IMG/VR virus record: IMGVR_UViG_3300008516_000123
Span: 1 to 27,542 of that record
DNA: 27,542 nt
Strand: one strand, 5' to 3'
Source: a virus
Shown piece by piece: positions 8,041-27,068 of this stretch; positions within the stretch are counted from its first letter, which is position 1; each line of letters begins with the position of its first letter. A program made the translations under genes and the position numbers. Under the pieces are notes generated by a model that had not been told where the DNA came from, did not search any database, and saw only the letters and a list, made by a program, of their open reading frames with translations.

Positions 8041-11000
8041 TTAGTCCAACAGTTTCCGGAGGGGGCTAGGCTTCGGTGCCAGTGTCCCTTCCTTCTCTGG
8101 TGTCTGAGGTACTGCATTCAACTTGTTGTAGGCCTCATTCACTAGCTCAGATGCCTTGTCCTGCCCTCGACTCTCAGCTATGGCCGTTGCCATCTCAGTG
8201 AACTGCCCTCGGTCCCCTGCTCGGAGCCGCATGATTAGCTGCTGAACCAGCCAGCTATCGTTCTTACCTCTTGATGCCGGAAGTACAGCCGCCGCCGCTC
8301 GGGTTGCTATGCCACTGCCCTCGAACGGTACGTCTTCCAGTGCTGTGTTGCCCAAGGCCCCGCCGATTGAGAAGGGCATGAAGCCTTCACCGAACTGTTG
8401 GAATGCGAACTGCACGCTGTCACTCAGGCCCAGCTCCTTCCCGTCCCGCTCAAACTCCTTGGTCAACATCCAGAACTCTTCCGGTGCAGTGATGAATGAC
8501 TGCACCCAAGGCATCGTCTTCCTGCTCAGGAACAGACCGGTACCCGCCAGAGGATTGAACTCCACCCTCATGCCGGAAGGCTTACGCTTGCCGGGTAGGG
8601 GGAGATTACTTCCCCGCTCTGTATCCATCTGAAGCTCGACACCCATGAAGCCGGGAAGTTCTCGGAACTGCTTGCCCACGTTGAGGTAGATGGGCTTGCC
8701 TTTGTCATCCCGCTCACCGGTGTCCATATGGAAGATGCGTTTGCCCGGCTCGTTCTCGTAGATGTAGTGGCCGGACAATGCCTTGTTCATTAGATTGGCG
8801 TAGAAGAGATACCCCATCGAAGCGTTCCGCCAGTGCTTGATGCCGAGGAACCCCTTCACTGCGTTACTGGACTTCAGCCCCGGTACTGCCTGCATGAAGC
8901 CTAGCCCCGCCTTGATCGAGGAGACGTTCCAGTCCACCGACGTGAAGATGGCCGCCAACATCCGGAGGTTCTTGGGCTTGGACAGTACGTTCTCTGCCCA
9001 CCCTTGGGTTGCGATCTCCCAGTTCTGCCCTCCGAACTCATCGTTGATGTACTTGGCAACCTGCTCTGACAGCATCTCATCATCCATCTCAGCGATCCCC
9101 TTCTTCAAGGGATTGAATACCTTCTTACCACTGAGTACCCCGTCCTTCACTGCCTTCAACTGATTGTAGATCAAGTCGTAGGCTATGACCTTCATCGGTG
9201 TATGGTACTTCTCCCAGACCAGCTCATCGAACTTGTGCTGGACACCGAAGATCTTCTCTAGGTTCTCCATCGCCTTGGGGTTGCCCTTGGTGCCTCGCTG
9301 TACCCCTTCCCGCATGGCCCTCTCGAACTGGTCACGCATCACGTCATGCATGGGCACGCCCACCTTGACGCCAGCGTAGGCCGCCTGCTCAAACGCATCC
9401 CTGAAGGAGTCGGCATTGACCAGAGAGTTGAAGGCATCCCCGGTGTACCAGTCCTTCCGGAACATGTTCTGTGCAATCTTGGCGTTGACCTTCATGCCCC
9501 GCACTGGGTTCAGCAGAGCGATGCTCGACTCCCCTAGCGAGTACATGTGGAAGAAGGCGAACATGAAGTTGGCACGCTTCGCCATGGCCGACAGCTTGTA
9601 GAAAGCGTTCAGGTCTTCTGGCTGCTCAAGGATGTTGCGAAGGTGCTTGGCCCCATCCTCATGGACGACAACCTCACTGTTCTTGATGATGGACTCAGGC
9701 AGCCCATCCCTTGCGATGCGGTCGGTGAATGCTGACCGGAACCGGACATACCCTTTAGGTACTGCCGCCCCGTCCATCACTCGCAGGAAGATCCTCTCCC
9801 CGCTGTCAGAGATAGCCAGCTCGTTCAGGTCCTTGATGAGCTTCTTGGTAGCCATGGCCCTAGAATACTGCGCCTCAACCAAGGCGTAGGTTTCTGCGAT
9901 GTCCATGCTTCGGGGAGTGAGGCCACCCTCCAGCATACCATCACGAACCGACTCGAAGTACCGGTGCTTCTCCAGCTTGGCCGTGACCGGTAGCTGTCGG
10001 TTCCTGATGCGCCCAATCTTCTCCTGCGCCTCCTGCACTGGCTCGATCCACATGTGATGCAGCCAGTCGTCAGCGTAGTCGACAGCCTTGTCACCGATCT
10101 CGGCGTTCAGTTCGTTGATCTCTTTCCACATGGCATCGAACCGGGTGCGGAGATGCTTCTTCCACTCCACCGCTCTGGCCATGTACTCAGTGCCCTTCAG
10201 CCTAGCGACTACGTCTTGGTAGGTATCGTCGGCACCCTTCCAGCCGTTGCCCGTCTCTTCGAGGAAGGCGATCATGTCCTGCCTCACTGCCCGGTCCGGG
10301 ATGTCCTGCTTCATCCGCTGGTAGTTGATGGCCGCATCGAGCATGCCCGAGTCACGGTTGGCCACGTAATGCTTGGCTACCCTGTGTGCCTCAGCCGCTA
10401 CGCCCGTCTTCTGCCAGATGGGGTCAGTGACGCTGGCGATCCACCGCTTGATGGTGCCGGGTGCCTTGCCCTCTGCCTTAGCTGTCTTGTCGATCTCCTG
10501 CCCAGCCTTGACCAGTAGCTTACCCGTGGGGGTGTCAGCGATGGCCTCGTTGCTGGTGATCTCGTCCACTACCTTCTTCGCAGCCTTGGCCTTATCCGCG
10601 GTGGAAGCGGGAACGTCGATCCGCGAAGCGATGCGCTTGGCTTCGAGGTAGAGGTTGGTAGTTATGGTCGGGGGGTGCATGGCCGGGGGTAGCCCACTCA
10701 GTGCACGCTGGTCATCCAGCTCCGCCTTCCTCAATGACACCATATCCTCTTTGCTCAGGTACTTGACCCGAGGCGTGTCAGCAGGCGTCTTGTTGAAGAT
10801 GTGTGCCGGTGCGAGAGCTGGCAGGTTGGGGAGTATCTCAGTGGCCTCCCTACTTGCCCTCTCCTCTATCTGCCGGGTCAACCGGAAGTCAGTCATTATC
10901 TTGTTGATGCGCATGGTGTCTGGTGCCAGGTTCGACCCCTGCTGGATCATGGCCAGCCGCTTACCCTGTGCTTCAGCGATGCTGTTAGCCACCTGTGCCC

Positions 11001-11892
11001 CGTCTACTACCGGGTTGCCTCGACCTACCCCTGCCATCAAGTCCCATGACTTACCGAGAGAGGTAACTGCCTTGGCGTCCCCCTTCAGGGACTTACCCAG
11101 TACCTTTCGCAAAGCCTTAGAGCCGACGAACGCAGTGGTTCCCCAGATCAGGCCTCGGGCGGTTACTCCTAGTGCCTTGGAGCCGATCTTCGCTACCTTA
11201 CCCGCCGGGTTAGCTACTCCTGTGGCTATGTTAGCCCCAGTGTGCCCAACCGCAGCAGAGATCCCCGGCACGAGTAGCCCCGTCTCTTCGCCCTCCGACT
11301 CGTAGAGCTTCTGCGTAGCTATCATCAGGTCGGCCTCTGCATCCACCATCTCGTCGTAGATCCGGTAGTAAGGCATCAGTATTTTGTAGGATAGGGGGAG
11401 ATCATCGGTCCCGCCATCGGGGGACTTCAGCTCTTCCTCCTTCGGAGGGTCGATGCGGTGCATCGTCCACTCCGCCATGCCGGTGCCACCGGGGAGATAC
11501 TTCAGGCCCTTAAATACCGTCTCTCCTGCCAGCATCACCATACCGGGAAGGAGCAACCCCTCAGCCGCCAGTGCCTCCTTCGTGATGGAGCCAAGGTAGC
11601 GATTCCTTGCCGCCTCGTGCTGCTGCTTGAGGTAGTCCTGCGTATTCTCCCGCATGTGACTCTGGCCATCAGGCCCAGTGATGGGCTTGAGATAGCGCTG
11701 TGTGCGGAGCAGGTACTCCTCGTAGGCAGGTATCTCCGTAGCCCCAGCGATCTGCTGAGCCATGCTATCGAGCATACCGGTGTCGATAGGCTCAGGCTGA
11801 TAGGTGTCTATCTGCTGCCCTTGGGAGATAGCGATGTTCCGCGCCCACTGGTCAAGGTGGTCGGACTGTAGCTGGATTGATGTAGTCGTCAT
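8041..11892 (-). CDS. Very large putative internal virion (ejection) protein
   Basis: At 1283 residues this is the longest gene in the window. It has no enzyme motif I recognise. Near the N-terminus are hydrophobic, glycine-containing stretches (about residues 111-122, 205-225 and 245-259) that could enter membranes. The middle is long and helical with many charged residues, and a later segment near FMFAFFHMYSLGESS is again hydrophobic. Size, helical content and position after the tail genes fit the large internal proteins that short-tailed phages eject to carry DNA through the cell envelope. Large polyvalent phage proteins share this look. The ATG at 11892 overlaps the upstream stop as ATGA; an in-frame ATG 32 codons earlier would lie inside the upstream gene and is rejected. 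Confidence 0.65.
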   Translation of the reverse strand: MTTTSIQLQSDHLDQWARNIAISQGQQIDTYQPEPIDTGMLDSMAQQIAGATEIPAYEEYLLRTQRYLKPITGPDGQSHMRENTQDYLKQQHEAARNRYLGSITKEALAAEGLLLPGMVMLAGETVFKGLKYLPGGTGMAEWTMHRIDPPKEEELKSPDGGTDDLPLSYKILMPYYRIYDEMVDAEADLMIATQKLYESEGEETGLLVPGISAAVGHTGANIATGVANPAGKVAKIGSKALGVTARGLIWGTTAFVGSKALRKVLGKSLKGDAKAVTSLGKSWDLMAGVGRGNPVVDGAQVANSIAEAQGKRLAMIQQGSNLAPDTMRINKIMTDFRLTRQIEERASREATEILPNLPALAPAHIFNKTPADTPRVKYLSKEDMVSLRKAELDDQRALSGLPPAMHPPTITTNLYLEAKRIASRIDVPASTADKAKAAKKVVDEITSNEAIADTPTGKLLVKAGQEIDKTAKAEGKAPGTIKRWIASVTDPIWQKTGVAAEAHRVAKHYVANRDSGMLDAAINYQRMKQDIPDRAVRQDMIAFLEETGNGWKGADDTYQDVVARLKGTEYMARAVEWKKHLRTRFDAMWKEINELNAEIGDKAVDYADDWLHHMWIEPVQEAQEKIGRIRNRQLPVTAKLEKHRYFESVRDGMLEGGLTPRSMDIAETYALVEAQYSRAMATKKLIKDLNELAISDSGERIFLRVMDGAAVPKGYVRFRSAFTDRIARDGLPESIIKNSEVVVHEDGAKHLRNILEQPEDLNAFYKLSAMAKRANFMFAFFHMYSLGESSIALLNPVRGMKVNAKIAQNMFRKDWYTGDAFNSLVNADSFRDAFEQAAYAGVKVGVPMHDVMRDQFERAMREGVQRGTKGNPKAMENLEKIFGVQHKFDELVWEKYHTPMKVIAYDLIYNQLKAVKDGVLSGKKVFNPLKKGIAEMDDEMLSEQVAKYINDEFGGQNWEIATQGWAENVLSKPKNLRMLAAIFTSVDWNVSSIKAGLGFMQAVPGLKSSNAVKGFLGIKHWRNASMGYLFYANLMNKALSGHYIYENEPGKRIFHMDTGERDDKGKPIYLNVGKQFRELPGFMGVELQMDTERGSNLPLPGKRKPSGMRVEFNPLAGTGLFLSRKTMPWVQSFITAPEEFWMLTKEFERDGKELGLSDSVQFAFQQFGEGFMPFSIGGALGNTALEDVPFEGSGIATRAAAAVLPASRGKNDSWLVQQLIMRLRAGDRGQFTEMATAIAESRGQDKASELVNEAYNKLNAVPQTPEKEGTLAPKPSPLRKLLD

Positions 11893-13214
11893 TGCGTTAC
11901 CGGAACCTCTCCTTGTGGTGGGGGGTTCTCCATGTAGTACTCGACGCGAGATCGGAGGTAGCCCATGGCTGCGTAGGCGATGCCCCACTGCCCTCGGGAT
12001 GACCCAATGATCTGCTGATACATGGTCTGCAACTCAGGCATGCCGTCCGCCTCAAGGTACATCTTCTGGATGTCCTGTGGCATCTCCTCCATTGAGATGT
12101 ATGGAGATGGGACGGTGGACAGTTCAGTCGGGGGGATCTGCGATGTCAGCTCGGGGAACTCTACCCCGAAGTGCTCCGCCATCGCCTCAGAGACGCCAGC
12201 CGCTGCATCGTTCAGCTCAGGCCTACGCCGGTCAGCCTCTATCTCCCTCAACCGCGATGATGTGCCCTCAATCAACTGGAGGTTGAGTGGAGCGATGTCA
12301 TCTCGCGCCAGCATGGAACGCTGCAAGTCCTCGTTCTGCATGGTGAGGGCTGCGTTCTCCTTGGCCCGTTCCCACTCCTCGCCGTACTGCTGTCGGAAGG
12401 CCTGCGGGTTGTTGCTGAGTTGGCCGTACAGGATCGCCGTTCCCGGTGACTTGGGTCCAGCTCCAATCCCCCATATGCCATCGTCTTCGTTCAGTACCCG
12501 GTCAAGCTCTGCCACCTGTAGCAGTTGACTCTGGCCGGAACGGAGCCGCTCCATCTCTAGGTCCACCAACTGCTGACTGGCTTCCTCTGCACCCGGTGTC
12601 ATGGGTGGGGTGTTGGTCAGCTTCTGGCCGGCAGCTACGATGCTCCCGACTCCCTTGATGGCCCCTCCGATGATCCCACCTGTGACTTGAGCCTTGGTGC
12701 GCTCGATTTCTAGCCGATTGCGGTGGTCCAAGCCCTTCATGTAGATCTCGTTGGAGAGATCAAATGCCGCTTGGTCCTGAGCTTCAGCCTTCAGCACTTC
12801 CTTCTTGCCTTCAGAGATCTCTCCGAGGTAGCTCAGCAGGTCGTCTCGTGGGGTCTCGCCGGGTTCAATGGCATTGACGATTGCATCCATTCCGGGGAGG
12901 CCAGCTTGAGCCGCCTCCATTTCAATTTGATTACCAAGTTGCAGGTCGAGTTCCGCCTTCTGACCGTCTAGTTTCGCCTTCAGGTCTGCGAGTTGCTGCC
13001 CTCGCCTAGCTTCCTTCAGCTTGGACAGGGCAGATGGGATGCCGGGGTTGAACTGAAAGGCCTTCCCTAGCGCCCCGGCAACCTCCGGGTTATCCATGAG
13101 TTCCGGGACCTGAGTCACCAGCTCCAACAGAACGCTCTGCTCTTGCGCAGATCTCTGCTGGTTCTGCTGGTGTACCGCACTCAGCCCGGTCATTGAATCT
13201 TGAAGTAGGCCCAT
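11889..13214 (-). CDS. Putative internal virion protein with glycine-zipper segment
   Basis: This 441-residue protein is mostly helical, rich in Gln, Glu and Leu, with long likely coiled regions in the first 170 residues. A short hydrophobic glycine-zipper-like stretch, GGIIGGAIKGVGSIVAAG, lies near residues 180-197 and could span or disturb a membrane. No catalytic motif is seen. It lies 3 bases after the glycine-rich protein and overlaps the 1283-residue protein as ATGA, so these genes are probably made together. By position and composition it may be part of an ejected internal protein set, but I cannot assign a family. Confidence 0.6.
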   Translation of the reverse strand: MGLLQDSMTGLSAVHQQNQQRSAQEQSVLLELVTQVPELMDNPEVAGALGKAFQFNPGIPSALSKLKEARRGQQLADLKAKLDGQKAELDLQLGNQIEMEAAQAGLPGMDAIVNAIEPGETPRDDLLSYLGEISEGKKEVLKAEAQDQAAFDLSNEIYMKGLDHRNRLEIERTKAQVTGGIIGGAIKGVGSIVAAGQKLTNTPPMTPGAEEASQQLVDLEMERLRSGQSQLLQVAELDRVLNEDDGIWGIGAGPKSPGTAILYGQLSNNPQAFRQQYGEEWERAKENAALTMQNEDLQRSMLARDDIAPLNLQLIEGTSSRLREIEADRRRPELNDAAAGVSEAMAEHFGVEFPELTSQIPPTELSTVPSPYISMEEMPQDIQKMYLEADGMPELQTMYQQIIGSSRGQWGIAYAAMGYLRSRVEYYMENPPPQGEVPVTQ

Positions 13215-13217
13215 ATC

Positions 13218-14330
13218 TTAATTCCCGTAGTAGCCCTGCAACTGCAGATTCATGAGAAACTCCTGCATCGCCCGGTCCTGAGCTAGCTGCTGTCCCTGTA
13301 GCCCGAGGCTTCCGCGCCTGATGTCAAGGTCTCCCAGTCCAAGCTGTCGCTGCAGACCGATGTTTGCGAAGCCAAGATCACGTTCTACATCCAAGCCGGC
13401 ATAGCCTAGGTCAATGTTCTTCAGCCCTAGCATGCGCTGGATGTTCGATTCCTTGTTCCGCAGGTTGGCGTTCGCTATGTTGTTCGCCCCGCCGAATGCA
13501 ATGCCGAGAGACTGATTAGCCATCTGTGCATTGTTCAGGTCGAGGTTGGTGAGAGCACCGGCGAGTTGGTCTAGACCCGCAGCTTCGATACCGGCCAAAC
13601 CCTGTTGGGTAATTCCAGAATCGAATAGAGACTTAGCCGACCCTTGACCCGCCCGTCGCAGGAGCTGATCCCGCATGGCGTTCTTGTTGGTCGCCATCAA
13701 CTGCCGGCGTGAGTCCTCCAAGATCTCGGTGGGCATGCCGGGGTTCTCGAACATGTCCATGAGGCGAGCTTTCATGGGGCCGAAGATGTCTTGGCCAAGC
13801 CCAGCCATACCGGACCTGCCTCCCCCACCGCCACCGCCGCCGCCTCCTCCGCCTCCTCCGCCTCCTCCTGATCCGCCTCCGAGAGCTGCGCCTGCCGCGC
13901 CACCGGTTGCACCTGCACTACCATCCTGCCCTGCACCTACACCCCCTCCTCCACCGCCACCTGCTCCACCCCCCGCGTTTGGGTTGTAGTTCAGGATTCG
14001 ATTGAGGAAGTGGTCAGCAGTGGCCCCGTTGCCGAGGAGTCTGTTGAGCAAGGTAGAGTCGATGTTGGTCTTCTTGCCCTTGTACGCCCCTTTGTTGAAG
14101 AGCTGGGAAAGGACTGTCTGCATCCGGGCTTTCCCACCCTTGAGTCCCTGCATCGCCTCCATTACAGCCGGATCGAATGTCAGGTCCCCATAGTTGAAGC
14201 CCCCTGCCACAGCGTCCTCACGCTGCTTGTCTCTCCTTCTCTTATCCTTCTGGGCCTCATCGCTCACCCGACTATCGTTCTGGTTCGGGCGATTCGGGTT
14301 CGGTCCCGGATTACGTTCATCTTGTGGCAT
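13218..14330 (-). CDS. Glycine-rich structural candidate with C-terminal leucine repeats
   Basis: This 370-residue protein has three parts. Residues 1-118 are polar and basic at first (KRRRDKQRED), then helical. Residues 119-178 are almost pure Gly/Ala/Ser, including 17 glycines in a row at 155-171. Residues 180-370 are helical with short repeats of the type LGL-x2-(I/L)-x-L, 11 to 12 residues long, between 301 and 353. The build suggests two folded parts joined by a flexible linker. No family is recognised. It sits among putative internal virion proteins and shares a start overlap (TAATG) with the upstream gene. The start region (MPQ, ribosome binding site AGGAGGTTTC) closely resembles that of its upstream neighbour. 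Confidence 0.7.
   Translation of the reverse strand: MPQDERNPGPNPNRPNQNDSRVSDEAQKDKRRRDKQREDAVAGGFNYGDLTFDPAVMEAMQGLKGGKARMQTVLSQLFNKGAYKGKKTNIDSTLLNRLLGNGATADHFLNRILNYNPNAGGGAGGGGGGGVGAGQDGSAGATGGAAGAALGGGSGGGGGGGGGGGGGGGGGRSGMAGLGQDIFGPMKARLMDMFENPGMPTEILEDSRRQLMATNKNAMRDQLLRRAGQGSAKSLFDSGITQQGLAGIEAAGLDQLAGALTNLDLNNAQMANQSLGIAFGGANNIANANLRNKESNIQRMLGLKNIDLGYAGLDVERDLGFANIGLQRQLGLGDLDIRRGSLGLQGQQLAQDRAMQEFLMNLQLQGYYGN
13818..13868 (-). repeat. 17-glycine codon run with 9-base tandem repeat
   Basis: These 51 bases encode 17 consecutive glycines. Inside, at 13840-13866, the + strand unit CCGCCTCCT occurs three times in a row. The repeat keeps the reading frame, so gain or loss of units would change linker length only. 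Confidence 0.85.
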
Positions 14331-17368: not shown

Positions 17369-20229
17369 TACATCGGTGCCGAGCTAAGCCCCTGCTGGGA
17401 CGTGAAGTTGTTGGCCCGGTCCTTGCCGAGATTCTGCCAAGTGGCAGCGTACTCAAACAGCCGGATGACCTCATGGTGGCGAGTGGTCTGCTTGAAGTCT
17501 ACCTTCGGTTCGACCTCTGCTCCTACGTCCCCACTCACATGCCGCAAACGATCGGCGTATATATGTCCAGAAGTGATGGACAAAGTATCCGTGTCTCCAG
17601 TCGTACCCCCATCGAGGTACAGGGTAGAGACGACATCTCCTGTCGCTGCAAAGTTCTTTGGCCGGATTGAATCTGCGAGGTAGTCAATCCAGAGGAATCG
17701 CTTCGAAATGAAGGGGCCAAGGTTGCCGATGATTGGCCGGAACTTCACTGATGCCTCATCCCTCGGGATGTTTGTCTCGCCTACGATCTCGGTGCCGAAG
17801 CGGAGTACCTGACAAGGAGACTCCACCCCCTCATGGTCGTAGGGGAACAATGCCCTCTTATCTCTCCGGGTGCGTACTCCCCCGAGGAGGGTGTCACCCC
17901 AGCCTAGCGTCTGTACGTTCACGTCCCAGTAGTTCACAACTGGTACCTTGTATCGCCGGATGAAGTTGAAGGGCGCGTCCAACTGCCCCACCCAGATACC
18001 ATTGCTGGCATCGAAGATGAGGGTCTGACCGACCTTGTTCTCGTACGGGTACCCTAGGGGGTAGATGTATTCGTAGGAGAAGAACAGACGATTGTGCTTG
18101 GGGTCGAAGCTCAGGTCTACTGAGTTGGCATCCACCCCTCTACTGTTCGGCCAGTTGTAGGTCGGGAAGACTGAGAAGCCCTTCTCGTTACCCTTGAGCA
18201 GTGGACTTATCGCCTTCGATATGTCGACTGCGCCGCCGTCAGTGTACAGGTACACCGCGCCGTTCCAGTAGAAGAAGGTCCCCTTGTCAGTGGCTATCGC
18301 CGCGTTCGGATGGGGACAACCAATGCCGGTATCCGAGTCTTCGACCGTGACCTCAACGAACGTAATGTCTTCGGGGTTCCTTCCCACCATGCGGTACGTG
18401 TGGTTGTTCTTGAAGATGATGAGTCCCGAACGGTCTCGCACCAGAGCAGTTGCTTCGTCCCCGTCTTCGGCGTATACCGCCGCGTAATTACCATCCCAGA
18501 AGAAAGACTCTGGAGCATTGACATCGGTCCAAAACAGATAGGTTCTCTTCGAATCAGCAACGCCCTGTCGAGTCCCGAGTCCCCATATTCTGTCGTAATA
18601 GACGACAGGCGAGAAGAAAGTGGTAGGGGGCGGATCACCATGCGTAAAGGGTAGGTCGCCCAGATCCAGATCCGAGAGCGTGTCCATAAGCGTAATAGTC
18701 GGTGTAGCATAGTCGATGTCCGCCACGAAGTAGGGTGAACCCCGATCCTTCATGGTCCGGTAGAAGCGGACCTTGGATACGGTGGCTGGAGTGCCTGATA
18801 GGACTACTTGGACTCGCGTTCCTGTGCCGGCATCCCACCCTTGAGCCTTGTTCGCTTCAGTGACTGTGGCACTATAGATCCCTCCGGTGTAGTTTGGAAA
18901 GTATGGAGAGAGAGGGCCTTCGTCAAGCTCATCATCCAGATATGCAATGAAGTACCGGACGACACCTTCGACGTTGTTCTCACTGGCTGTACTTGAGGCG
19001 GTGTTAGAGACCGCCACGTTAGGGGTAGGTCTGTCCATCCCCACGGTCTTTGAGTAGGTGGTCGAGGCTTCAAATGGGTCGTCCTCTCTCAGTCGGAAGG
19101 GAGTGCTGATGCCATCGTAGAAGTACGAGAAGCCATTCATTCCCGCCGACTTCCAGATACCGTAGGGAGTGGTCTCAGCCTGAACTACGTTCGAAGCTGT
19201 CCAGATGTGCTTCATCGCTGCCGACGCAGGCTTCCTTCCCGGTACGCCATAGACGTGCATGATCCCAGTCCACGTACCTGATACCGTATTGCAGATTTGG
19301 GAGAAGGTACTCGAAGCGTTGAAGAAGTTGTCTGTGATCTTTTCAGACTGGGTGCCTAGGGGTGATTGCGAGGCGATGAACGGAGCGATGGTCCCGCCCC
19401 CACCCATGTACATGAACCGCCCCATCGAGTCGGCCCCCACCGTTGAGGCTGCCGTGGTCGGATAGCCCACGATCCGGTCGTGGCCGGCAGCCGAATCTGC
19501 GTATGAGTAGGTCCCGAGGAACAGCTCGTTGTTGTACCAATTCGACTGGGGTAGCATCCAGATGTTCGGGAGAGACCCAGTGGCCGCGGTGTAGTTCAGC
19601 CGAAAGGAGATTGTATTGACCTCTGCCGTATCGTTGTGAGTGAAGACGAGGGAGATCGTCTCACTGACACCAATGGCCGGGGCCTCTATCCTCAAGCCGC
19701 CATCTGTGATGCTAGTAACGATAGCGTTACTAGCGCCACTCAGAGTCATGGTGATGTTGTCGTGGGCGTTCTGCTCGTTGGGAATCCAGCACCAGTCGTA
19801 GGGGTACACCAGCATCGCTAGGCCACGGGTCATCGTGGTGGCCATGGTGTTCCCCCACGGGAAGTTCATCTTGATCGTGCTGGTGTCTGGAGGAGCGAGC
19901 AGGTAGAAGTGTGCACTGGTGATGGTCCCGACTGTCCGCATCACGCCGACTGTGATCTCGTCGTAGTTACCGTAGTCCGCTTCTTTCAGTCGGGATATGT
20001 GACAGATGCCGGGGTAGCGCCCAGCAGCATCGGATGCCGAGTACTCGTTGATCGTACCAGTCGACGCGAAGATGTCCACGCCGTAAGCCGGGCGTAGTGC
20101 GCCGTGTGCCAGCGGGTCAAGCATGGCATTCACCATCTCACCGATGGCTCCGGGCCGGGCGTACCGATTGACTGCGATGTTCCAGCCATCTCGGAAGTCC
20201 TGCCGGGTGGTGTATGACCTATTGGCCAT
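17368..20229 (-). CDS. Large tail nozzle / stabilisation-like protein
   Basis: This 953-residue protein is almost wholly beta-rich, with frequent Tyr, Trp, Gly and Thr. The middle and C-terminal parts contain repeated blade-like segments, for example YLFWTDVNAPESFFWDG, LIIFKNNHTYRMVG and GTFFYWNGAVYLYTDGGAV, spaced as in a beta-propeller. This is the look of the podovirus tail tube or nozzle protein (T7 gp12 and P22 gp10 types). It would form the distal part of the short tail through which DNA leaves. The preceding gene looks like an adaptor, as expected in that order. The start overlaps the upstream stop as TAATG, with GGAGG close before it. Confidence 0.7.
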   Translation of the reverse strand: MANRSYTTRQDFRDGWNIAVNRYARPGAIGEMVNAMLDPLAHGALRPAYGVDIFASTGTINEYSASDAAGRYPGICHISRLKEADYGNYDEITVGVMRTVGTITSAHFYLLAPPDTSTIKMNFPWGNTMATTMTRGLAMLVYPYDWCWIPNEQNAHDNITMTLSGASNAIVTSITDGGLRIEAPAIGVSETISLVFTHNDTAEVNTISFRLNYTAATGSLPNIWMLPQSNWYNNELFLGTYSYADSAAGHDRIVGYPTTAASTVGADSMGRFMYMGGGGTIAPFIASQSPLGTQSEKITDNFFNASSTFSQICNTVSGTWTGIMHVYGVPGRKPASAAMKHIWTASNVVQAETTPYGIWKSAGMNGFSYFYDGISTPFRLREDDPFEASTTYSKTVGMDRPTPNVAVSNTASSTASENNVEGVVRYFIAYLDDELDEGPLSPYFPNYTGGIYSATVTEANKAQGWDAGTGTRVQVVLSGTPATVSKVRFYRTMKDRGSPYFVADIDYATPTITLMDTLSDLDLGDLPFTHGDPPPTTFFSPVVYYDRIWGLGTRQGVADSKRTYLFWTDVNAPESFFWDGNYAAVYAEDGDEATALVRDRSGLIIFKNNHTYRMVGRNPEDITFVEVTVEDSDTGIGCPHPNAAIATDKGTFFYWNGAVYLYTDGGAVDISKAISPLLKGNEKGFSVFPTYNWPNSRGVDANSVDLSFDPKHNRLFFSYEYIYPLGYPYENKVGQTLIFDASNGIWVGQLDAPFNFIRRYKVPVVNYWDVNVQTLGWGDTLLGGVRTRRDKRALFPYDHEGVESPCQVLRFGTEIVGETNIPRDEASVKFRPIIGNLGPFISKRFLWIDYLADSIRPKNFAATGDVVSTLYLDGGTTGDTDTLSITSGHIYADRLRHVSGDVGAEVEPKVDFKQTTRHHEVIRLFEYAATWQNLGKDRANNFTSQQGLSSAPM

Positions 20230-21008
20230 TAGTACCTCCGAATCCAGCCGGCCTTGGTTGCGTACTTGGTGCGGAAGTTCATCCGCCCCGCTGCAGGGAT
20301 CTGGTAGTCGTTCTCCACTTTGGGTTCGTGAGCCGCCTGCATGAGACGCATCTCAAGAGGGACTATCTTGGTGAGTAGGTCGTTCAGCTCCAGATCCTTC
20401 ATGAGCCGGAGATAGTGAGCTGTCTTCAGGGCCAGCAGCACGTCGAACTCAGTGGGGAAGCAGGGCGCGTTCTTCGTATCGCTCCACTTCTCAATCCCGT
20501 AGTGGATCACCCGGACTGAGTTGGTGCCCCCGGTCGTGGGGGTAGTGGCCATCCACATCTCCATGTTCATGCCGGAGAAGGTGGAGACCTGTGCTCTGAG
20601 AGTGTAGTAGCTCGGAACGGAATAGGTTGATCCGCCGTACAGGGCGTTCTGCATGAACTCCCAGTCTCGGGGCCTCACAACATAGGGGGTGCCCCCGGAT
20701 GATAGGTCCACTCCACCGTCGTCTACCTCTACCATCTCAATATCCGATAGGGGGTAGACGGTGGGGTCGTACGTAACCACCGGGTTTGACGCAGCCGAGT
20801 CTAGAAAGGTGACTTGCCGGGTACACGGGTGCCGCTTATGGAGGAGCTGGGTACAGATCTCCTCGTAGGCGCGGGTGAACGCATACTCCGACTCAGTAGT
20901 CGACCAGAGGGACGATACCGTCCCGTCTGAGTCACCCGCTAGAAACTTCGCTTCCGTCTCGAACCGCGCTCGGGTCCGGGTCGGAGGCGTCAGGCTGGTC
21001 TTCGCCAT
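20229..21008 (-). CDS. Head-tail adaptor-like protein
   Basis: The 259-residue protein starts with a basic stretch, then helices (SEYAFTRAYEEICTQLLH), a beta-rich middle and a C-terminal helical part (VLLALKTAHYLRLMKDLELNDLL). Length and mixed helix-beta layout fit the adaptor ring that joins portal to nozzle in short-tailed phages, and the neighbour downstream is the nozzle-like protein. The call is by position and general shape; no motif is decisive. The ATG lies inside the end of the glycosyltransferase gene, 77 bases of overlap, with AAGGAG 7 bases upstream, so the start is well supported. Confidence 0.55.
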   Translation of the reverse strand: MAKTSLTPPTRTRARFETEAKFLAGDSDGTVSSLWSTTESEYAFTRAYEEICTQLLHKRHPCTRQVTFLDSAASNPVVTYDPTVYPLSDIEMVEVDDGGVDLSSGGTPYVVRPRDWEFMQNALYGGSTYSVPSYYTLRAQVSTFSGMNMEMWMATTPTTGGTNSVRVIHYGIEKWSDTKNAPCFPTEFDVLLALKTAHYLRLMKDLELNDLLTKIVPLEMRLMQAAHEPKVENDYQIPAAGRMNFRTKYATKAGWIRRY

Positions 21009-21699
21009 TCATGTGCTCCTTGATGATTCGTTCCGGGGGACGAGGGACGTAGACCTTCTTACCAATGTGTCCGACGTGTACTCCGAAATGTACGCTTGGG
21101 TCAAAGCCTTTGGCCTTGAGCTGCTTCATGAGATCTGAGTCCTCCCCAAAGAACAGGAAGGAATCCTTCTCTGCATCGGCTCCTTCGTGTACCCACCGGG
21201 GATGGAAGTAGGGCTTCTTGAGCTTCTTGAGAACTGCGGTGTCCATCAGAGTGAAGGCTAGGCCGGTCACGTCCACTGACTTACAGACTTCCGCCTCAGT
21301 GTGCTTCCTGACCTTCTCTAGCATCTCTTCCTGTGAGCACCAGTCCTTCTTACCCTTGCGCCAGTTGACACAGGGCATGTTCGACCCATCCCGTCGCACT
21401 GCTAGTCCTGACACCAGCCCCATCTGTGGACTCTCTTGGAGCGCCTCGAACAGCATGAAGAAGTGCTGGGGAGCAAACACCATGTCGGCATCTACCCATA
21501 GGATGTAGTCAACCTTGTCTGGATCAATTCGGTCCATCAGCATGGTGCGTGAAACCGCAACCTCTGCTACTCCGATCATGTCCAGTGTGAATGGGACGTG
21601 TTGCCTCAGCTCGAACAACGAGTGGACCGTCATAGGGTCGATGTCGTCGTAGGCTGGGAGGCACACATGCAGCCGCGGGGCTATCCCTTTGTCACTCAT
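20932..21699 (-). CDS. GT-A glycosyltransferase
   Basis: This 255-residue protein has the glycosyltransferase family 2-like pattern: a first strand HVCLPAYDD at 11-19, the metal-binding DAD at 70-72 in ILWVDADM, then GEDSD at 185-189 and a histidine-containing end HFGVHVGHIGKK at 204-215. It would move a sugar from a nucleotide-sugar donor to an unknown acceptor. Phage proteins of this kind may modify DNA, virion proteins or host envelope sugars. The C-terminal 30 residues are acidic and probably disordered, and overlap the adaptor gene. It is the first gene after a terminator, and AGGAG precedes its ATG. Confidence 0.85.
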   Translation of the reverse strand: MSDKGIAPRLHVCLPAYDDIDPMTVHSLFELRQHVPFTLDMIGVAEVAVSRTMLMDRIDPDKVDYILWVDADMVFAPQHFFMLFEALQESPQMGLVSGLAVRRDGSNMPCVNWRKGKKDWCSQEEMLEKVRKHTEAEVCKSVDVTGLAFTLMDTAVLKKLKKPYFHPRWVHEGADAEKDSFLFFGEDSDLMKQLKAKGFDPSVHFGVHVGHIGKKVYVPRPPERIIKEHMNGEDQPDASDPDPSAVRDGSEVSSG

Positions 21700-21751: not shown

Positions 21752-22192
21752 TTACGGAACTCGCTGTGCGAACTTCCGGCCAGTCAAGTACGCGCTAACG
21801 GACACGAAATCGTTATCCGCATTAGCGTAGGTGAATGCCCAACGGTACAGGGCATTGACCCCAGTTCCCGTCTCCACGACAGGTACCTCAGACTGAATAG
21901 CCAGAGGGCCACTCGCAGAGAGAGCACCAGTCGAGATTGCAGTGACCCCGCCCTTGTGTGCAACAGGGACGAAAGTCGTACCACCGTCGTACGACACCTG
22001 AAGGGCCGCAGCGATAGTGGGAGTAGTACCGGTAGCCGTCGCACCCGGATCAAGGACGATGCCAATGGCATCCATCCCGCCCGGAGCGAAGGTCTCGGAG
22101 TAGTTGAGGTCAGCATTGGTAACAGTCCTTGCGGAAATGTCGTCACTACCGAGCGCAACCGACTCCTTCAGTACACGAAAAATAGAGAGCAT
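21752..22192 (-). CDS. Beta-rich protein, possible capsid decoration protein
   Basis: The 146-residue protein is rich in Thr, Ala, Gly and Val with alternating hydrophobic residues. The segment ALQVSYDGGTTFVPV, near residues 62-76, resembles a strand-turn-strand of an Ig-like or jelly-roll domain. No cysteine or catalytic motif is visible. It is two genes downstream of the major capsid gene and just before a terminator, where decoration or head-fibre proteins are often found. GAGGAG lies 5 bases before the ATG. The role is inferred. Confidence 0.65.
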   Translation of the reverse strand: MLSIFRVLKESVALGSDDISARTVTNADLNYSETFAPGGMDAIGIVLDPGATATGTTPTIAAALQVSYDGGTTFVPVAHKGGVTAISTGALSASGPLAIQSEVPVVETGTGVNALYRWAFTYANADNDFVSVSAYLTGRKFAQRVP

Positions 22193-22219: not shown

Positions 22220-22708
22220 TTATGCTGCGACGATCTTCTCTCGAAGTAGGCGAACGGCCAGATCGACTTTCTCCTGATGGGCCTTCGAACCGGTGTGACC
22301 GGCCTTGGCTTGTCCATTCTGGAGGTGCTGCTCACACAGCTTGCAAAAGTAGCCGCCCTCTCCTTCGGGAACGAAGAATCGCTCTTCATCGGTAATCTCG
22401 TCACCGTCTTCTGAAACTCCCACGAACTCGACGCCGTGGCTTGGGTGGTTCAGCAAGAAGTCGATGACTTCCTGTTCTTCCACACCCAGCTTCCGGGCCG
22501 CTTCGTCTGTCTTGAGGTATCCCCAAGCCTTCTTGGAATGCCCCTGAGTCGGAAGACCCGGTGCCTCGAAAGGCCTAGTCGACGCATTGAAGCGCAACCA
22601 GATGGGCTTCTTGACTTGAGGGATATTGCCATGAATGGTCTGGACAATCTCCTCGTAACCGGGAACCATCAACAGTGATGGAGATTTTCCCCTTGAGAGA
22701 AATATCAT
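22220..22708 (-). CDS. Head-block protein with matrin/U1-type C2H2 zinc finger
   Basis: The 162-residue protein has two visible parts. Residues 1-110 contain a beta-rich start and a helix (TDEAARKLGVEEQEVIDFLL) and match nothing I know. Residues 120-146 carry a C2H2 finger with ligands C122, C125, H138 and H144: the spacing C-x2-C-x12-H-x5-H and the ending GSKAHQEKV match the matrin/U1 or JAZ type known mainly from eukaryotic RNA- or double-stranded-RNA-binding proteins. Zinc binding is inferred. It lies 9 bases after the major capsid gene. It may be a small capsid component, or a nucleic acid binding protein made with the head. AAGGAG precedes the ATG. Confidence 0.75.
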   Translation of the reverse strand: MIFLSRGKSPSLLMVPGYEEIVQTIHGNIPQVKKPIWLRFNASTRPFEAPGLPTQGHSKKAWGYLKTDEAARKLGVEEQEVIDFLLNHPSHGVEFVGVSEDGDEITDEERFFVPEGEGGYFCKLCEQHLQNGQAKAGHTGSKAHQEKVDLAVRLLREKIVAA

Positions 22709-22717
22709 GGTTACTCC

Positions 22718-23878
22718 TTACGCAGCGTTCTTGATTCGCCCGTGAGTCTTCTCCAACCTGCGGACCATACCCATATCGGTGCGGTACTCGTCCTTCCGAG
22801 CGTCCTTGTCGTTCGCTTGGATGTTGGTGAAGAGCTTGGTGTCTCGTCCCCGGAGGAAGCGGTAGCCAACGTTTTCGAGATCGACAACGTAGGCGCGTTT
22901 CCCATAGGTGTCACCCTCGAACAGATTGTGCTTGACAACCATCAGGTCGCCATGAGGGGTGATGAGACGCTGGACATTCAGGCCGAGGGACTGATCGGTC
23001 GGCACGAGTTCGAGGTACTTGGTACCTTCCAACGAGATGTTGGAGACGACGCTCGGAGCCGCGAACATGACCTTCTTGCCGCTGCCATAGCGGAACACAT
23101 CCTCGGCAAAGCCGAAGAACGTGACCATATTAAAGATACCACCGAAGTCGGCGTCGTTGGTCGAGATGACCTCGTCAACCCCACCGGTGGTTCGGATACG
23201 TGGTGAAGCCGCGCCGGACAGAGTATCGCTAGAGCCATACTCGCCAAACCACAGCTTGTTCTCGATGTCGACAGCGTGCTCGACGCCGACTTTCTTCTGC
23301 TGGTAAGCAAGGTCATCCGGGCCGTACAGCTCGGTTGCCAGCTCAGTGTTGGTGAACTCGAAAGGCGACCGGATGATCTCGGTGCTATTCGTCTTCACGA
23401 CCTTCTGAGTCGTCTTGCTCAGACCAGAGGTTGCGCCCTCAGCCGCAGCGCCACCGAGGATGGTGATCTGGTCATTGTCCAGAATCGCAGCCGCGGCAGT
23501 TCCGCCAAAGCTACGGATGCACTGGAACTGATTCGCGGAGTCCTTGGACTCTACATACAGTACCTCACCAGTGCGCTGGATACGAAAGACACTGCCGATA
23601 CGGTAGTAAGCACCGTTGTCGACCGTGATGGTTGTGTGAGTGACGGTAGAAAGCGCACCATTGATACGATCAAGGGTGGGGATTCTCTCGTCTTCTTGCC
23701 AGTGATAGTCCGGAGCCATGACCGCCTTCTTGCTGACCTTAGCAGTCAACAGAGCGAGCGGGGCCTTTTCGCTATCCAGCCAAAAAATCTCGTCATCCAT
23801 CTGGATGACTTTGGATGCGGCAAGGATAGCACCGGAACCAGCATTGGCTCTCATCAGTTGATTGATGGTTGGAGCCAC
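22718..23878 (-). CDS. Major capsid protein, SU10-like (DUF5309)
   Basis: At 386 residues, this fits the HK97-fold capsid proteins of the SU10/DUF5309 group. Features in common include the N-terminal helical part, the segment near residue 60 (WQEDERIPTLD), the E-loop-like beta region (YRIGSVFRIQRTGEVLYVES near 91-110), the middle VEHAVDIENKLWFGEYG, and the C-terminal P-domain and basic tail with many Arg and Lys. It forms the icosahedral shell. It follows a scaffold-like gene as expected. The start codon is GTG with AGGAGG 8 bases upstream. The family call is from memory of the pattern and is good but not certain. Confidence 0.8.
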   Translation of the reverse strand: MAPTINQLMRANAGSGAILAASKVIQMDDEIFWLDSEKAPLALLTAKVSKKAVMAPDYHWQEDERIPTLDRINGALSTVTHTTITVDNGAYYRIGSVFRIQRTGEVLYVESKDSANQFQCIRSFGGTAAAAILDNDQITILGGAAAEGATSGLSKTTQKVVKTNSTEIIRSPFEFTNTELATELYGPDDLAYQQKKVGVEHAVDIENKLWFGEYGSSDTLSGAASPRIRTTGGVDEVISTNDADFGGIFNMVTFFGFAEDVFRYGSGKKVMFAAPSVVSNISLEGTKYLELVPTDQSLGLNVQRLITPHGDLMVVKHNLFEGDTYGKRAYVVDLENVGYRFLRGRDTKLFTNIQANDKDARKDEYRTDMGMVRRLEKTHGRIKNAA

Positions 23879-23902: not shown

Positions 23903-24928
23903 TCACTGCATGAAGGGGATTGCGCTGATCTGTTTCTTGGTGCCAACGATCCGGCGCTTCTCCTCTTCTTCAGGAGAGACCTTCTGTTTGGGTTTATTGA
24001 GTTCCCGTCCCCGCTTCGATGCAGGGGAGGAACGCTTCGCTGATGATACAGGTGCTGGAGCGCTCTCGGTGTCAGTGTTGTCTCCGGGACTTTCGGCGTC
24101 GGCCCTTTCGACAGCGCGTGCGACCGCGAGAACTGCAGTCATGATACCTTGGGGTGTCGTGGCGAGACTCTGGTTGCCGTTCCCAATGTACTGAAACAGT
24201 AGGGAGTTGTCTTGCAACTCGTGTGCCTCTTTCACGATGGCGGCTTCTAGCCCACCCATCTTGTATGCTGCCTGCAATCCTGCTGTGATCCCCGCGTTGA
24301 CTTTATCGCGTTCCTGCCTATCGGTCTCGACCGCTTGGGCTTTTTTGAGGCTTTCCTTTACCCCACCGACTTCGCTCTCAATGAGCGCCTCGGCTTCCTT
24401 ACGTGCGAGAACTGCGATAGTCGGACCCAGTTTTGCCGGATCTTCGATTGCTTCCGCTAGTGCGGCCTGAATCGCTGGGTCCTGATAGTTGATCCCCGCG
24501 CCCTTGGGCTTGGGGGCCTCCTCCTCCGGGATGGCCGGGGTAGCTGCTCGCGCTCGAATCTGTTCTTCGAGGGCTTCCAACTTCCCCTGCTGGTAAGCCA
24601 GCCGCTCTGCCATCTGGCCGTCCGAAACCTCTTCCGTGGTCTGCTCGGGTTCCGTTCGGAATCTGGCAAGCGTCTGATCGAATTCGTTTCCTTCTAGTTC
24701 TTCATCGTCCCCGTCGGCTTCGGTCGAATCTTCCACGGAAATGTCCATCTCCGGGGGACCGGCTTGATAGACGGGAGTGTCTCCACCCCAGCCGTCTCCT
24801 TCGTCGGGAACGTCTTCTGGGAGTCTTGCATGTTGCTCCTGCTCAATGGCGTCGAGACTTGAGTCTGACTCGTGCACCTGTTGGTCGGTTCCAAAAACGC
24901 TGATGTCACCTTTAGGTTCTTCAGGCAT
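23903..24928 (-). CDS. Scaffold-like protein
   Basis: The 341-residue protein is very acidic in its first 110 residues, helical in the middle with likely coiled regions (QQGKLEALEEQIRARA and on), and basic at the C-terminus (KRGRELNKPKQK ... KKQISAIPFMQ). An acidic, helical protein with a basic end, encoded directly upstream of the major capsid gene, is the classic shape of a scaffold that guides procapsid assembly and then leaves. No protease domain is visible. I chose ATG 24928 because AGGAGG lies before it and it overlaps the upstream stop; the longer start would lie well inside the preceding gene. Confidence 0.75.
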   Translation of the reverse strand: MPEEPKGDISVFGTDQQVHESDSSLDAIEQEQHARLPEDVPDEGDGWGGDTPVYQAGPPEMDISVEDSTEADGDDEELEGNEFDQTLARFRTEPEQTTEEVSDGQMAERLAYQQGKLEALEEQIRARAATPAIPEEEAPKPKGAGINYQDPAIQAALAEAIEDPAKLGPTIAVLARKEAEALIESEVGGVKESLKKAQAVETDRQERDKVNAGITAGLQAAYKMGGLEAAIVKEAHELQDNSLLFQYIGNGNQSLATTPQGIMTAVLAVARAVERADAESPGDNTDTESAPAPVSSAKRSSPASKRGRELNKPKQKVSPEEEEKRRIVGTKKQISAIPFMQ

Positions 24929-25202
24929 TCTCTTCCTCCTCTTCATCGTTGTAGGCATCTGGGTCTACCGTGATGAGTGCCCGAAGCTGACCTGAAGCGT
25001 CAATCCTCGCTTGGAGCTGGGCGATTGCAGCGGGTTCAGCCGGGCTGATCCGCATGAGGGAGTCTAGGTCGCGCTTGATGGTAGCCTCCAAGTAACCCAC
25101 CAACGCCTTACCTGCCGGGGTATGCTGTAGCAATGCGATCTGCTGGAAGTCTTCTCCCGAGATCGGTTCGGCCTCCCCAAGTATGTCTAGATATTTGCTC
25201 AA
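24921..25202 (-). CDS. Hypothetical small acidic head-block protein
   Basis: This 93-residue protein is mostly helical and ends in a string of glutamates (NDEEEEENA). The middle, GKALVGYLEATIKRDLDSL, looks amphipathic. No family is recognised. It lies between portal and scaffold, so a role in head assembly is possible. The start is TTG with AGGAGG a few bases upstream; no ATG in frame gives a reasonable start. The 3' end overlaps the scaffold start by 8 bases. Confidence 0.7.
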   Translation of the reverse strand: MSKYLDILGEAEPISGEDFQQIALLQHTPAGKALVGYLEATIKRDLDSLMRISPAEPAAIAQLQARIDASGQLRALITVDPDAYNDEEEEENA

Positions 25203-25206: not shown

Positions 25207-25212
25207 CCTCCT
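25207..25212 (-). promoter_or_regulatory. Ribosome binding site that sets a TTG start
   Basis: AGGAGG on the minus strand lies 4 bases before the TTG at 25202, directly after the portal stop codon. It supports translation from TTG. Confidence 0.6.
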
Positions 25213-27068
25213 TACGCTAGTGGTACCCCGCCCTGCGCCGCAGCCTGAGCTGCGAATTCGGCATCAGTGGGTACCTGTTCGTTTCCGGGGGCTTGACTCT
25301 GCTGTGCAGCTAGCTCTGCTGCTCGCTGAGCTTCGATGATCTTCCGTCCCTCAGTGATGAGGAACTGAGCGTTATCGAAGCCGAAGCCCTCCGCTAGATC
25401 GAGCATGGTGCGTTCCATCAGGGGGTGGTCAAGGGGCATGCCCATGTTCCCGAAGGTGGAGAGAGCGCCATTGGCTCGTTGCAACTTAGCACCGCGGTTG
25501 CCCGGCTCAGCCGAAGCAACGTCGATGGTAAAGTCTAGATCGAGGCCCGTACGGTTGGCCAGATCTTCTGGCGCGACGGTCTCGAAAGCATCCTCGGTGA
25601 ACATGTCACCGGTGACGCGAAGCTGCTGTTCTTCAGACATGTAGATCTCATTCAGGAGGATGAACATCTTCCCGAGATCGTGCAAGGCTCCTTCGGAGAG
25701 GAGTTTGAACATGAGTCCAGCTCGTGTCCCTGAAGCCTCCGCAAGAAGGTTAGCCTCAGTGGCTGTGCCTCCTGTAAGCTGCGAACTAAGACCTGCGAAG
25801 GTGTCAGTTGCTCCGCCAGCCTTTTGCTCCCATCGTTGTAGCTCATCTGATTCCCTGTACAGGGAGAAGTCGAGGGGTGCTGTCTGTAGCTCCTCGATGT
25901 CCCTCATGTCGTCAACGTATAGCGCACCACCCGGACGGAACCGGAGTTGATTCGGGTTCAGGTTAGAGGTACGCAGGATCTTGAACATCCGGTGGGCCGC
26001 GTACAGGAGATTGTCCAGTCGGGCGCTGTGGAGGATGTTCAGCTCAATGGCCAGCGAGAAGAGGATCTCTACCAGAGAGATTCCGTAGAACTCTTTGGGC
26101 AGGGGGATCGGGCAGAACTTGATGAAGGGCTTCAGCCCCAGAGGATTGGCCCGGTACTGGATTGGGTCCAGCTTCGGGTTCTCTTTGACGATGCTGACGA
26201 CCTTGCCGTCGTACCAGCACTCGATCTCGGTGAACTCCCGCTTGTTGGAGTCGATCCCCACCACCATGTCGCCAAAGGTCTCCTTGCGGGACTCCTCTAG
26301 CGTCTGGGTGTCCTTGTCCTTCTGGTTCCCCTTCTTCATCCACTCGATCAGCTTGCGGACAGCCGGCTCGTCGTAGATGCCCTCGTCTGCTTCGAGGCTG
26401 GCTATTACATTCTGGATGTTCTGGTCGCGTTCGTGGATGATCCACTCGCAGCTGTCTACGCTCCAGCCATCGGGGTCCGGGATGATCTCGTCAAGGTCGC
26501 ACTGCTCGACATAGGGGCCGTCCCATACCGTCATGGGCTGCATCTCTACCTTGTCGGTCTCCTTGAACTCGCCGGTGGGGAAGTAGCCGCTGAGGAGGGT
26601 GATCTCCTCCTGATCCACCGTCCGGGTCATCCGGTTCCGCACGTCCTTGCGGTGGCCGACCTTCCAGATAGAGGTGCCGTAGATCTTGGCAGCCTTCACG
26701 TAGTCCACCAGCTCGATGCTCAGCTTGAGAGCGTCCCACTGGTACGTGATAAGGACTCGGTGCTTGCCGGCGCGGTCTCTGTCGTCCTCACTGCGGGGAC
26801 CGACGAAGATCTCGGGCTTATTGGCTGCGAGGCGAGGCATGTAGGCCTCGACATCCGAGAAGATCATGGGGATGGCCAGCTCAGACGTGGAGAAGTCTTC
26901 CGGCATCTCAAAGTAGGACCGGTACGCCTTGTACCACTCGTCCCACTTGTCCCGCATGGACTCGATTACGTCCTTGCCACGTTCGTAGTGTTCCCAGACA
27001 ATCGCCGCCTGCTCATCCTTCGGGAGCAGCTCGTCAGTCCAGTCGATCTTGTTCACATGTTCTGGCAT
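25212..27068 (-). CDS. Portal protein
   Basis: The 618-residue protein fits podovirus-type portals of the P22-like group. It has an N-terminal helical region with many aromatic residues (WDEWYKAYRSYFEMPEDF), the wing and stem domains in the middle, a likely long helix near LVEILFSLAIELNILHSARLDN, and a Gln/Ala-rich helical C-terminus like a barrel. It forms the dodecameric ring at one capsid vertex through which DNA is packed and released. It sits directly after the terminase gene, with its start touching the terminase stop, the standard order. No catalytic motif is expected. The size is within the usual range for portals. Confidence 0.85.
   Translation of the reverse strand: MPEHVNKIDWTDELLPKDEQAAIVWEHYERGKDVIESMRDKWDEWYKAYRSYFEMPEDFSTSELAIPMIFSDVEAYMPRLAANKPEIFVGPRSEDDRDRAGKHRVLITYQWDALKLSIELVDYVKAAKIYGTSIWKVGHRKDVRNRMTRTVDQEEITLLSGYFPTGEFKETDKVEMQPMTVWDGPYVEQCDLDEIIPDPDGWSVDSCEWIIHERDQNIQNVIASLEADEGIYDEPAVRKLIEWMKKGNQKDKDTQTLEESRKETFGDMVVGIDSNKREFTEIECWYDGKVVSIVKENPKLDPIQYRANPLGLKPFIKFCPIPLPKEFYGISLVEILFSLAIELNILHSARLDNLLYAAHRMFKILRTSNLNPNQLRFRPGGALYVDDMRDIEELQTAPLDFSLYRESDELQRWEQKAGGATDTFAGLSSQLTGGTATEANLLAEASGTRAGLMFKLLSEGALHDLGKMFILLNEIYMSEEQQLRVTGDMFTEDAFETVAPEDLANRTGLDLDFTIDVASAEPGNRGAKLQRANGALSTFGNMGMPLDHPLMERTMLDLAEGFGFDNAQFLITEGRKIIEAQRAAELAAQQSQAPGNEQVPTDAEFAAQAAAQGGVPLA

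What the first reader, a model, noticed from the sequence alone, without database searches (positions are those of the whole stretch)
22277..22345. Eukaryote-like matrin/U1 zinc finger next to the capsid gene
The spacing C-x2-C-x12-H-x5-H and the ending SKAHQEKV match a finger class found mostly in eukaryotic RNA-binding proteins. Finding it directly downstream of the major capsid gene is unexpected and may mark a packaging, RNA-binding or capsid-stabilising role.
Basis: partly seen in the sequence, partly recalled or inferred. Interest (0 to 1): 0.6.

Follow-up and report, generated by a model that had tools for sequence, protein, structure and literature searches.

The report
Zinc finger on a capsid-neighbour protein
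The gene just after the coat-protein gene of this uncultured phage encodes a small protein that ends in one matrin-like zinc finger; related phages, including one lineage with a different coat-protein family, carry similar fingers on the matching gene, so this looks like a recurrent phage capsid accessory (perhaps one that ties DNA to the shell) rather than something borrowed from eukaryotes.

Summary
Nucleotides 22277-22345 (minus strand) encode C122-x2-C125-x12-H138-x5-H144 in a 162-aa protein whose gene (22220-22708) starts 9 nt after the SU10-type major capsid gene. Shuffling gives 0.03 such motifs per window. Two orthologues in the same locus keep all four ligands, and one passes the Pfam zf-C2H2_jaz cut-off. 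AlphaFold gives the finger pLDDT ~94, and the best PDB matches are matrin-type fingers (SF3A2, TUT1, TUT4, JAZ). "Eukaryote-like" is right for spacing and predicted fold only. Six of 79 SU10-type capsid loci carry a C-terminal finger on the gene after the capsid gene. In a second capsid lineage (phrog_267), 10 of 11 loci do, and there the His-His spacing drifts between x3, x4 and x5 among orthologues. The matrin-like spacing is therefore a local variant of a phage C2H2 finger. Fingerless relatives share the N-terminal domain; two Vibrio phages end in a short Lys-rich tail instead. Most likely function (inferred, not shown): a capsid-bound accessory whose basic finger contacts DNA during packaging, working like lambda gpFI. 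Zinc binding, nucleic-acid binding and virion presence are untested. I found no published precedent in the open papers I could search.

The parts
22277..22345 (-). Matrin/JAZ-type zinc finger core, C122-x2-C125-x12-H138-x5-H144
   Evidence: Exact codon positions; ligands invariant in 3 orthologues; zf-U1 13.6 bits, below the cut-off of 22; orthologue L002 zf-C2H2_jaz 24.7 bits, above the cut-off of 22.6; AF2 hairpin 119-122/127-129 and helix 132-139, pLDDT ~94; PDB matches Z 7.9 and 7.5
22220..22708 (-). Gene of the 162-aa finger protein (P0001)
   Evidence: Open ATG ORF; orthologues at the same place in L001 (59%) and L002 (45%)
22364..22708 (-). N-terminal domain (aa 1-115), mostly beta with two helices (H67-74, H78-87); carries the family motif 'G-Y-L-x-T ... 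EVIDFL..H..(H/Y)GVEF'
   Evidence: AF2 pLDDT 81-94 over most of it; profile match to fingerless capsid-neighbour proteins A8 (88%, E 3.1e-6) and to the finger-bearing L016/L017/L024 (87%, E 4.1e-6) with the finger removed
22223..22276 (-). C-terminal basic helix/tail (helix 142-161), poorly conserved
   Evidence: AF2 helix; identity 19% and 6% to the two orthologues versus 60% and 57% for the finger
22709..22722 (-). Junction MCP stop / ribosome-binding site: GCGTAAGGAG, the TAA stop overlapping AAGGAG
   Evidence: Same overlap in L001 and L002 (gaps of 14 and 9 nt); suggests coupled late expression
22718..23878 (-). SU10-type major capsid protein
   Evidence: PF17236 E 7.5e-36; phrog_1328 major head protein E 4.6e-26
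21752..22192 (-). 146-aa protein next to the finger gene; possible minor capsid/decoration protein
   Evidence: Syntenic in L001 (62%) and L002 (32%); only a chance-level PHROG match to a minor head protein (E 0.45)
23903..24958 (-). 351-aa acidic protein upstream of the MCP, scaffold-like by position
   Evidence: Position and synteny only; no family match
25212..27068 (-). Portal protein
   Evidence: PF23899 SU10_portal E 1.7e-24
20229..21008 (-). 259-aa protein, head-tail adaptor candidate by position
   Evidence: Synteny in L001 (44%) and L002 (46%); no family match

Best explanation
The finger is a real zinc-binding module at the C-terminus of a late-expressed capsid accessory protein. Shown by computation: conserved ligands, predicted beta-hairpin/alpha finger fold, coupling to the capsid gene, and recurrence of C-terminal fingers on the capsid-neighbour gene in two capsid lineages. 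Inferred: the N-terminal domain docks on the capsid or procapsid lattice, and the positively charged finger (net +3 to +4 in this clade) contacts DNA, helping the DNA-terminase complex meet the procapsid or tethering packaged DNA to the shell. That would work like the lambda packaging chaperone gpFI, with a zinc finger as the DNA-contacting part. Step likelihoods: zinc finger real ~0.95; acts on the capsid ~0.7; finger contacts nucleic acid ~0.6; packaging or DNA tethering ~0.4.
For: Ligands invariant in three orthologues, and the finger (60%/57%) better conserved than the linker (44%/33%) and tail (19%/6%) around it. AF2 pLDDT ~94 for the finger; VIA Z 7.9 to SF3A2-type chains and 7.5 (0.9 A over 45 residues) to the TUT1 finger, with JAZ and other matrin-type fingers below. 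The gene abuts the MCP with its RBS overlapping the MCP stop in all three genomes, and portal-scaffold-MCP-finger-146aa-GT-adaptor order is kept. Fingers sit within 21 residues of the C-terminus of the gene following the MCP in 6 of 79 SU10-MCP loci and nowhere else on that strand within 1.6 kb. In the phrog_267 capsid lineage 10 of 11 loci long enough to judge carry one, two genes after the MCP. All 15 finger-plus-tail segments examined have zero or positive net charge, +3/+4 here, on a core that is acidic in this clade. Two fingerless Vibrio phage relatives end in a Lys-rich tail. [quoted passage not shown]).
Against: No direct evidence of zinc, DNA or capsid binding. Many relatives of the N-terminal domain have neither a finger nor a clearly basic tail (L018, L020, L026, L030), so nucleic-acid contact is not essential to the family. 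A single finger usually binds DNA weakly. Matrin-type fingers are best known for RNA. No detectable sequence relation to gpFI was found (searches list none).
Confidence: 0.42

Rival explanations
1. It is a virion cement/decoration or minor capsid protein, and the zinc finger only stabilises the fold or makes protein-protein contacts on the shell; nucleic acid is not involved.
For: Position between the MCP and a possible minor-head protein; SU10 gp10, the product numbered next after the MCP gp9, is predicted Ig-like and similar to minor capsid proteins (PMC9509320). In herpesvirus ORF68 the zinc fingers serve stability (PMC7889075). Fingerless relatives exist.
Against: The finger lies at the extreme C-terminus on a poorly conserved linker, is basic, and is present or absent among relatives, more like an appended contact module than a core stabiliser.
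Confidence: 0.27
2. It is a late RNA-binding regulator (Com-like in principle) that binds phage mRNA through the matrin-type finger.
For: Closest solved fingers are RNA-complex proteins: SF3A2, TUT1, TUT4, JAZ.
Against: Spacing drifts freely to classical C2H2 (H-x3-H, H-x4-H) in the phrog_267 set, so an RNA-specific architecture is not maintained; the fixed neighbour is a capsid gene.
Confidence: 0.14
3. The finger was captured recently from a eukaryote or a eukaryotic virus and kept as a lineage-specific oddity.
For: zf-met/jaz/U1 families are described mainly from eukaryotes; PDB hits are eukaryotic.
Against: Recurrence at the same position in other phages with diverse finger sequences and spacings, and drift of spacing within one orthologue group.
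Confidence: 0.04
4. Chance arrangement of Cys and His that binds no metal.
For: The window protein itself is below every Pfam cut-off (zf-U1 13.6 bits versus 22).
Against: Shuffles, orthologue conservation, an orthologue above the jaz cut-off, predicted fold.
Confidence: 0.03

Closest known systems
Matrin-type C2H2 fingers (Pfam zf-C2H2_jaz PF12171, zf-met PF12874, zf-U1 PF06220; SF3A2, TUT1, JAZ)
   Same: C-x2-C-x12-H-x5-H spacing; predicted beta-hairpin, helix, break and second helix; alignment with ZMAT2 keeps all four ligands; VIA Z up to 7.9
   Different: Single finger at the C-terminus of a phage protein; window sequence below Pfam cut-offs; spacing not fixed among related phage fingers
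Phage lambda gpFI (packaging chaperone)
   Same: Small phage protein proposed to bind the prohead capsid lattice and DNA (PMC4856287); encoded next to the capsid gene E (own knowledge)
   Different: No detectable sequence relation; gpFI is not known to me to have a zinc finger
SU10 gp10 (product numbered next after the MCP gp9)
   Same: Corresponding position in an SU10-type head module
   Different: Predicted Ig-like fold, no finger, not seen in the virion map (PMC9509320)
phrog_34377 (71-aa phage family, function unknown)
   Same: Matched by finger-bearing and fingerless capsid neighbours at the 'FeNGeYeTdD' motif (E 5e-6 to 2e-4)
   Different: No match by the window protein itself
Ros/MucR prokaryotic zinc fingers
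   Same: C2H2 ligands in a prokaryotic protein
   Different: 9-residue Cys-His spacer and a larger fold (PMC9779718); here 12

Membership tests
Matrin-type C2H2 finger (jaz/met/U1) | C-x2-C-x12-H-x5-H spacing | tested here: met
Matrin-type C2H2 finger (jaz/met/U1) | Pfam curated cut-off reached by this protein | tested here: not met
   zf-U1 13.6 bits versus 22, no jaz/met row for the window protein; orthologue L002 does reach jaz (24.7 versus 22.6)
Matrin-type C2H2 finger (jaz/met/U1) | Beta-hairpin/alpha fold with helix break between the two His | tested here: met
   AF2 elements 119-122, 127-129, H132-139, H142-161, pLDDT ~94; Z 7.9, 1.4 A over 52 residues (8i0r_v) and Z 7.5, 0.9 A over 45 residues (9j8p_A)
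Matrin-type C2H2 finger (jaz/met/U1) | Zinc and double-stranded nucleic acid binding | not testable with these tools
   Needs protein
Ros/MucR prokaryotic zinc finger | 9-residue Cys-His spacer | tested here: not met
   12 residues here; definition from PMC9779718
gpFI-like capsid chaperone | Gene adjacent to the MCP, co-expressed | tested here: met
   9-nt gap, RBS overlapping the MCP stop
gpFI-like capsid chaperone | Sequence or structural homology to gpFI | tested here: inconclusive
   Not among sequence hits or structure rows, which tested mainly the finger
gpFI-like capsid chaperone | Binds the MCP lattice and DNA | not testable with these tools
   Needs experiment
SU10-type head module | SU10 MCP and SU10 portal | tested here: met
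   PF17236 E 7.5e-36 and PF23899 E 1.7e-24
MCP-neighbour 'GeYeTdD' domain family | Profile match of the N-terminal domain, finger removed | tested here: met
   A7 versus A8 88%, E 3.1e-6; A7 versus A9 87%, E 4.1e-6; moderate, pairwise E-values
MCP-neighbour 'GeYeTdD' domain family | Same domain in the phrog_267 capsid lineage | tested here: inconclusive
   A10 versus fingerless A8 only 19%, E 0.0012; with fingers included 97.6%

The most novel reading that the evidence does not exclude
Tailed phages have a widespread, so far unnamed class of capsid-neighbour adaptors: a small capsid-docking domain with an exchangeable C-terminal nucleic-acid-binding tail (matrin-type finger, classical C2H2 finger, CxC..HxxxC finger or Lys-rich tail), gained or swapped repeatedly and linking the genome to the capsid lattice during packaging or inside the head.
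Probability: 0.33. Interest if true: 0.7.

Novelty: new variant of a known kind. Interest (0 to 1): 0.5.

Why it matters
C2H2-type fingers in tailed-phage head modules are not described in the open literature I could search. Their recurrence on the capsid-neighbour gene in two capsid lineages, with drifting His-His spacing, gives a testable way to ask how accessory head proteins contact DNA, and a natural series for how matrin-like and classical C2H2 spacings interconvert outside eukaryotes.

Tried and rejected
Relatives by the protein alone in viral contigs: none. The orthologues came from an MCP search, and a family profile then found only the same two. Phage collection by tblastn: only E 0.5 hits to Bruynoghevirus-type phages, not followed. 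Genome contigs: none for A1 or for the L100 protein. PHROGs: no match for the window protein. DNA-pattern hits L096 and L099: L096 is out of frame with stops, and the matching stretch of L099 lies in a homologous ORF, so both were treated as chance; L099 was not translated separately. Methanosarcina virus MetMV finger protein: a different protein near the terminase gene. SPbeta L3 hit near E 0.2: not in an annotated head context. The N-terminal domain alone gave no solved relative by sequence, and only weak structure rows such as 8b9x (Z 3.8); it was not predicted alone, so its fold is not called new. Common origin of the N-terminal domain in both capsid lineages: considered, but evidence too weak. 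Literature searches for phage capsid zinc fingers returned nothing specific. The gpFI primary paper is not held.

Full report
OBSERVATION. The window is a 27,542-base IMG/VR virus record. On the minus strand, ORF 22220-22708 encodes 162 aa. Cys122, Cys125, His138 and His144 are encoded at 22345-22277, exactly the coordinates given. The next ORF upstream on the coding strand, 22718-23878, is an SU10-type major capsid protein (PF17236 E 7.5e-36) and 25212-27068 an SU10-type portal (PF23899 E 1.7e-24). The finger gene starts 9 nt after the MCP; the MCP stop overlaps the ribosome-binding site (GCGTAAGGAG), as in both orthologous genomes.

CHANCE. Shuffling all six-frame ORFs of the window gives 0.0345 strict motifs on average; 4 of 200,000 shuffles of the protein contain it. 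Among 841,611 aa of six-frame ORFs from all loci, the strict motif occurs only in capsid-neighbour proteins (L100 was fetched with a similar pattern and is not independent). The window protein itself is below every Pfam cut-off (zf-U1 13.6 bits), but its orthologue in L002 passes zf-C2H2_jaz (24.7 versus 22.6) and nearly zf-met (20.7 versus 21.2).

CONSERVATION. A capsid-protein search found L001 (MCP 70%) and L002 (58%). Both carry the orthologue in the same place (59% and 45%) within the same order: portal, small protein, scaffold-like protein, MCP, finger protein, 146-aa protein, glycosyltransferase-like protein, adaptor candidate, ~950-aa protein. All four ligands are invariant. Finger identity (60%, 57%) exceeds that of the linker (44%, 33%) and of the C-terminal tail (19%, 6%).

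STRUCTURE. AlphaFold2 with 17 sequences: mean pLDDT 85, finger 94-95, hairpin 119-122/127-129, helix 132-139, helix 142-161. Foldseek top rows are U2 snRNP/spliceosome matrin fingers and TUT1. VIA-align: 8i0r_v Z 7.9, 1.4 A over 52 residues; TUT1 9j8p_A Z 7.5, 0.9 A over 45 residues; TUT4, JAZ and others below. Z under 8 can be a common arrangement, but nearly all rows above Z 4 are matrin-type fingers. Ligand distances were not measured.

NOT A ONE-OFF. An MCP-profile scan gave 80 capsid loci. In nearer relatives the gene after the MCP is a small protein with the motif 'F.nGeYeTdD...IdFl..H..fG'; phrog_34377, of unknown function, covers that motif. The N-terminal domain of the window clade matches these by profile with the finger removed (88%, E 3.1e-6; 87%, E 4.1e-6). 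Of 79 loci with enough downstream DNA, six carry a finger within 1.6 kb on the coding strand, each in the gene following the MCP and each within 21 residues of its C-terminus: L001, L002, L016 (H-x3-H), L017 (C-x-C...H-x3-C), L024 (H-x3-H; zf-C2H2 28.3 bits, above cut-off), L032 (H-x4-H). Many of the 79 loci are near-duplicates, so the fraction is only rough.

SECOND CAPSID LINEAGE. A pattern scan of IMG/VR for [FY][FY]CKxC-x12-H-x2-[ST]K-x-H gave five hits: L001, L002, two treated as chance (L096 shown out of frame; L099 its homologue) and L100. L100's MCP belongs to phrog_267 (E 7.9e-42), another family, and the finger gene is two genes after the MCP. Eleven more loci of that MCP show MCP, ~130-aa protein, finger protein; 10 of the 11 long enough to judge carry a C-terminal finger (L108 and L109 are identical; L114 has a degenerate CxxC...C). 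Among these orthologues the His-His spacing is x5 (L106), x4 (L107, L110, L113, L115-L117) or x3 (L108/L109, L112). So matrin-like spacing is a local variant, which argues against recent capture from a eukaryote. Whether the N-terminal domains of the two capsid lineages are homologous is open: 19% without fingers, 97.6% with.

FINGERLESS RELATIVES. Vibrio phages 1.284.A and BUCT006 have, directly after their MCPs, 58-61-aa proteins with the same motif and a Lys-rich C-terminus (profile match 95%, E 4.1e-8; tail net +3). Other fingerless members have no basic tail.

MECHANISM. The finger plus tail is basic (+3, pI 9.2) on an acidic core (-7). Together with the position and coupling to the MCP, I infer a capsid-docked accessory whose finger contacts DNA, helping the terminase-DNA complex meet the procapsid or tethering DNA. 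Lambda gpFI is proposed to do this by binding the gpE lattice and DNA non-specifically (PMC4856287). This is analogy, not homology. The main rival is a structural cement protein; the next, an RNA regulator.

KNOWN OR NEW. Matrin fingers are known, and so are capsid-neighbour chaperones. I found no report of a C2H2-type finger on an MCP-neighbour protein, within an open-access library only. It is not Ros/MucR (9-residue spacer; PMC9779718). I rate it a new variant of a known kind, interest 0.5.

Noticed in passing
window 444-2828 (+): One 794-aa ORF fuses a uracil-DNA glycosylase superfamily domain (PF03167, E 9.6e-17) to a 3'-5' exonuclease and family A DNA polymerase (PF00476, E 1.4e-64).
   Followed up: partly
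window 20932-21699 (-): Glycosyltransferase-like gene inside the head/tail module (phrog_34859 E 1.4e-10), conserved in L001 and L002.
   Followed up: no
window 7705-8031 (-): Small protein starting with an FmdB-type zinc ribbon (PF09723, E 3.3e-7, below cut-off).
   Followed up: no
window 8041-11988 (-): 1315-aa protein without a Pfam match at E 0.01, possibly an internal virion protein by size and position.
   Followed up: no
window 13218-14330 (-): Protein with long uninterrupted glycine runs.
   Followed up: no
L033:6252-6467: Two genes after the MCP, a short ORF with a zinc-ribbon-like CxxC...CxxC pattern.
   Followed up: no
L095:4749-5093 (Methanosarcina virus MetMV): A different protein next to the terminase gene also ends in a C2H2 finger (CDVCGKECKSELGLNSHKRSH).
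   Followed up: partly
L106-L117, gene directly after the MCP: A ~130-aa protein sits between MCP and finger gene in this lineage; possibly the counterpart of the window's 146-aa protein, with order swapped.
   Followed up: partly
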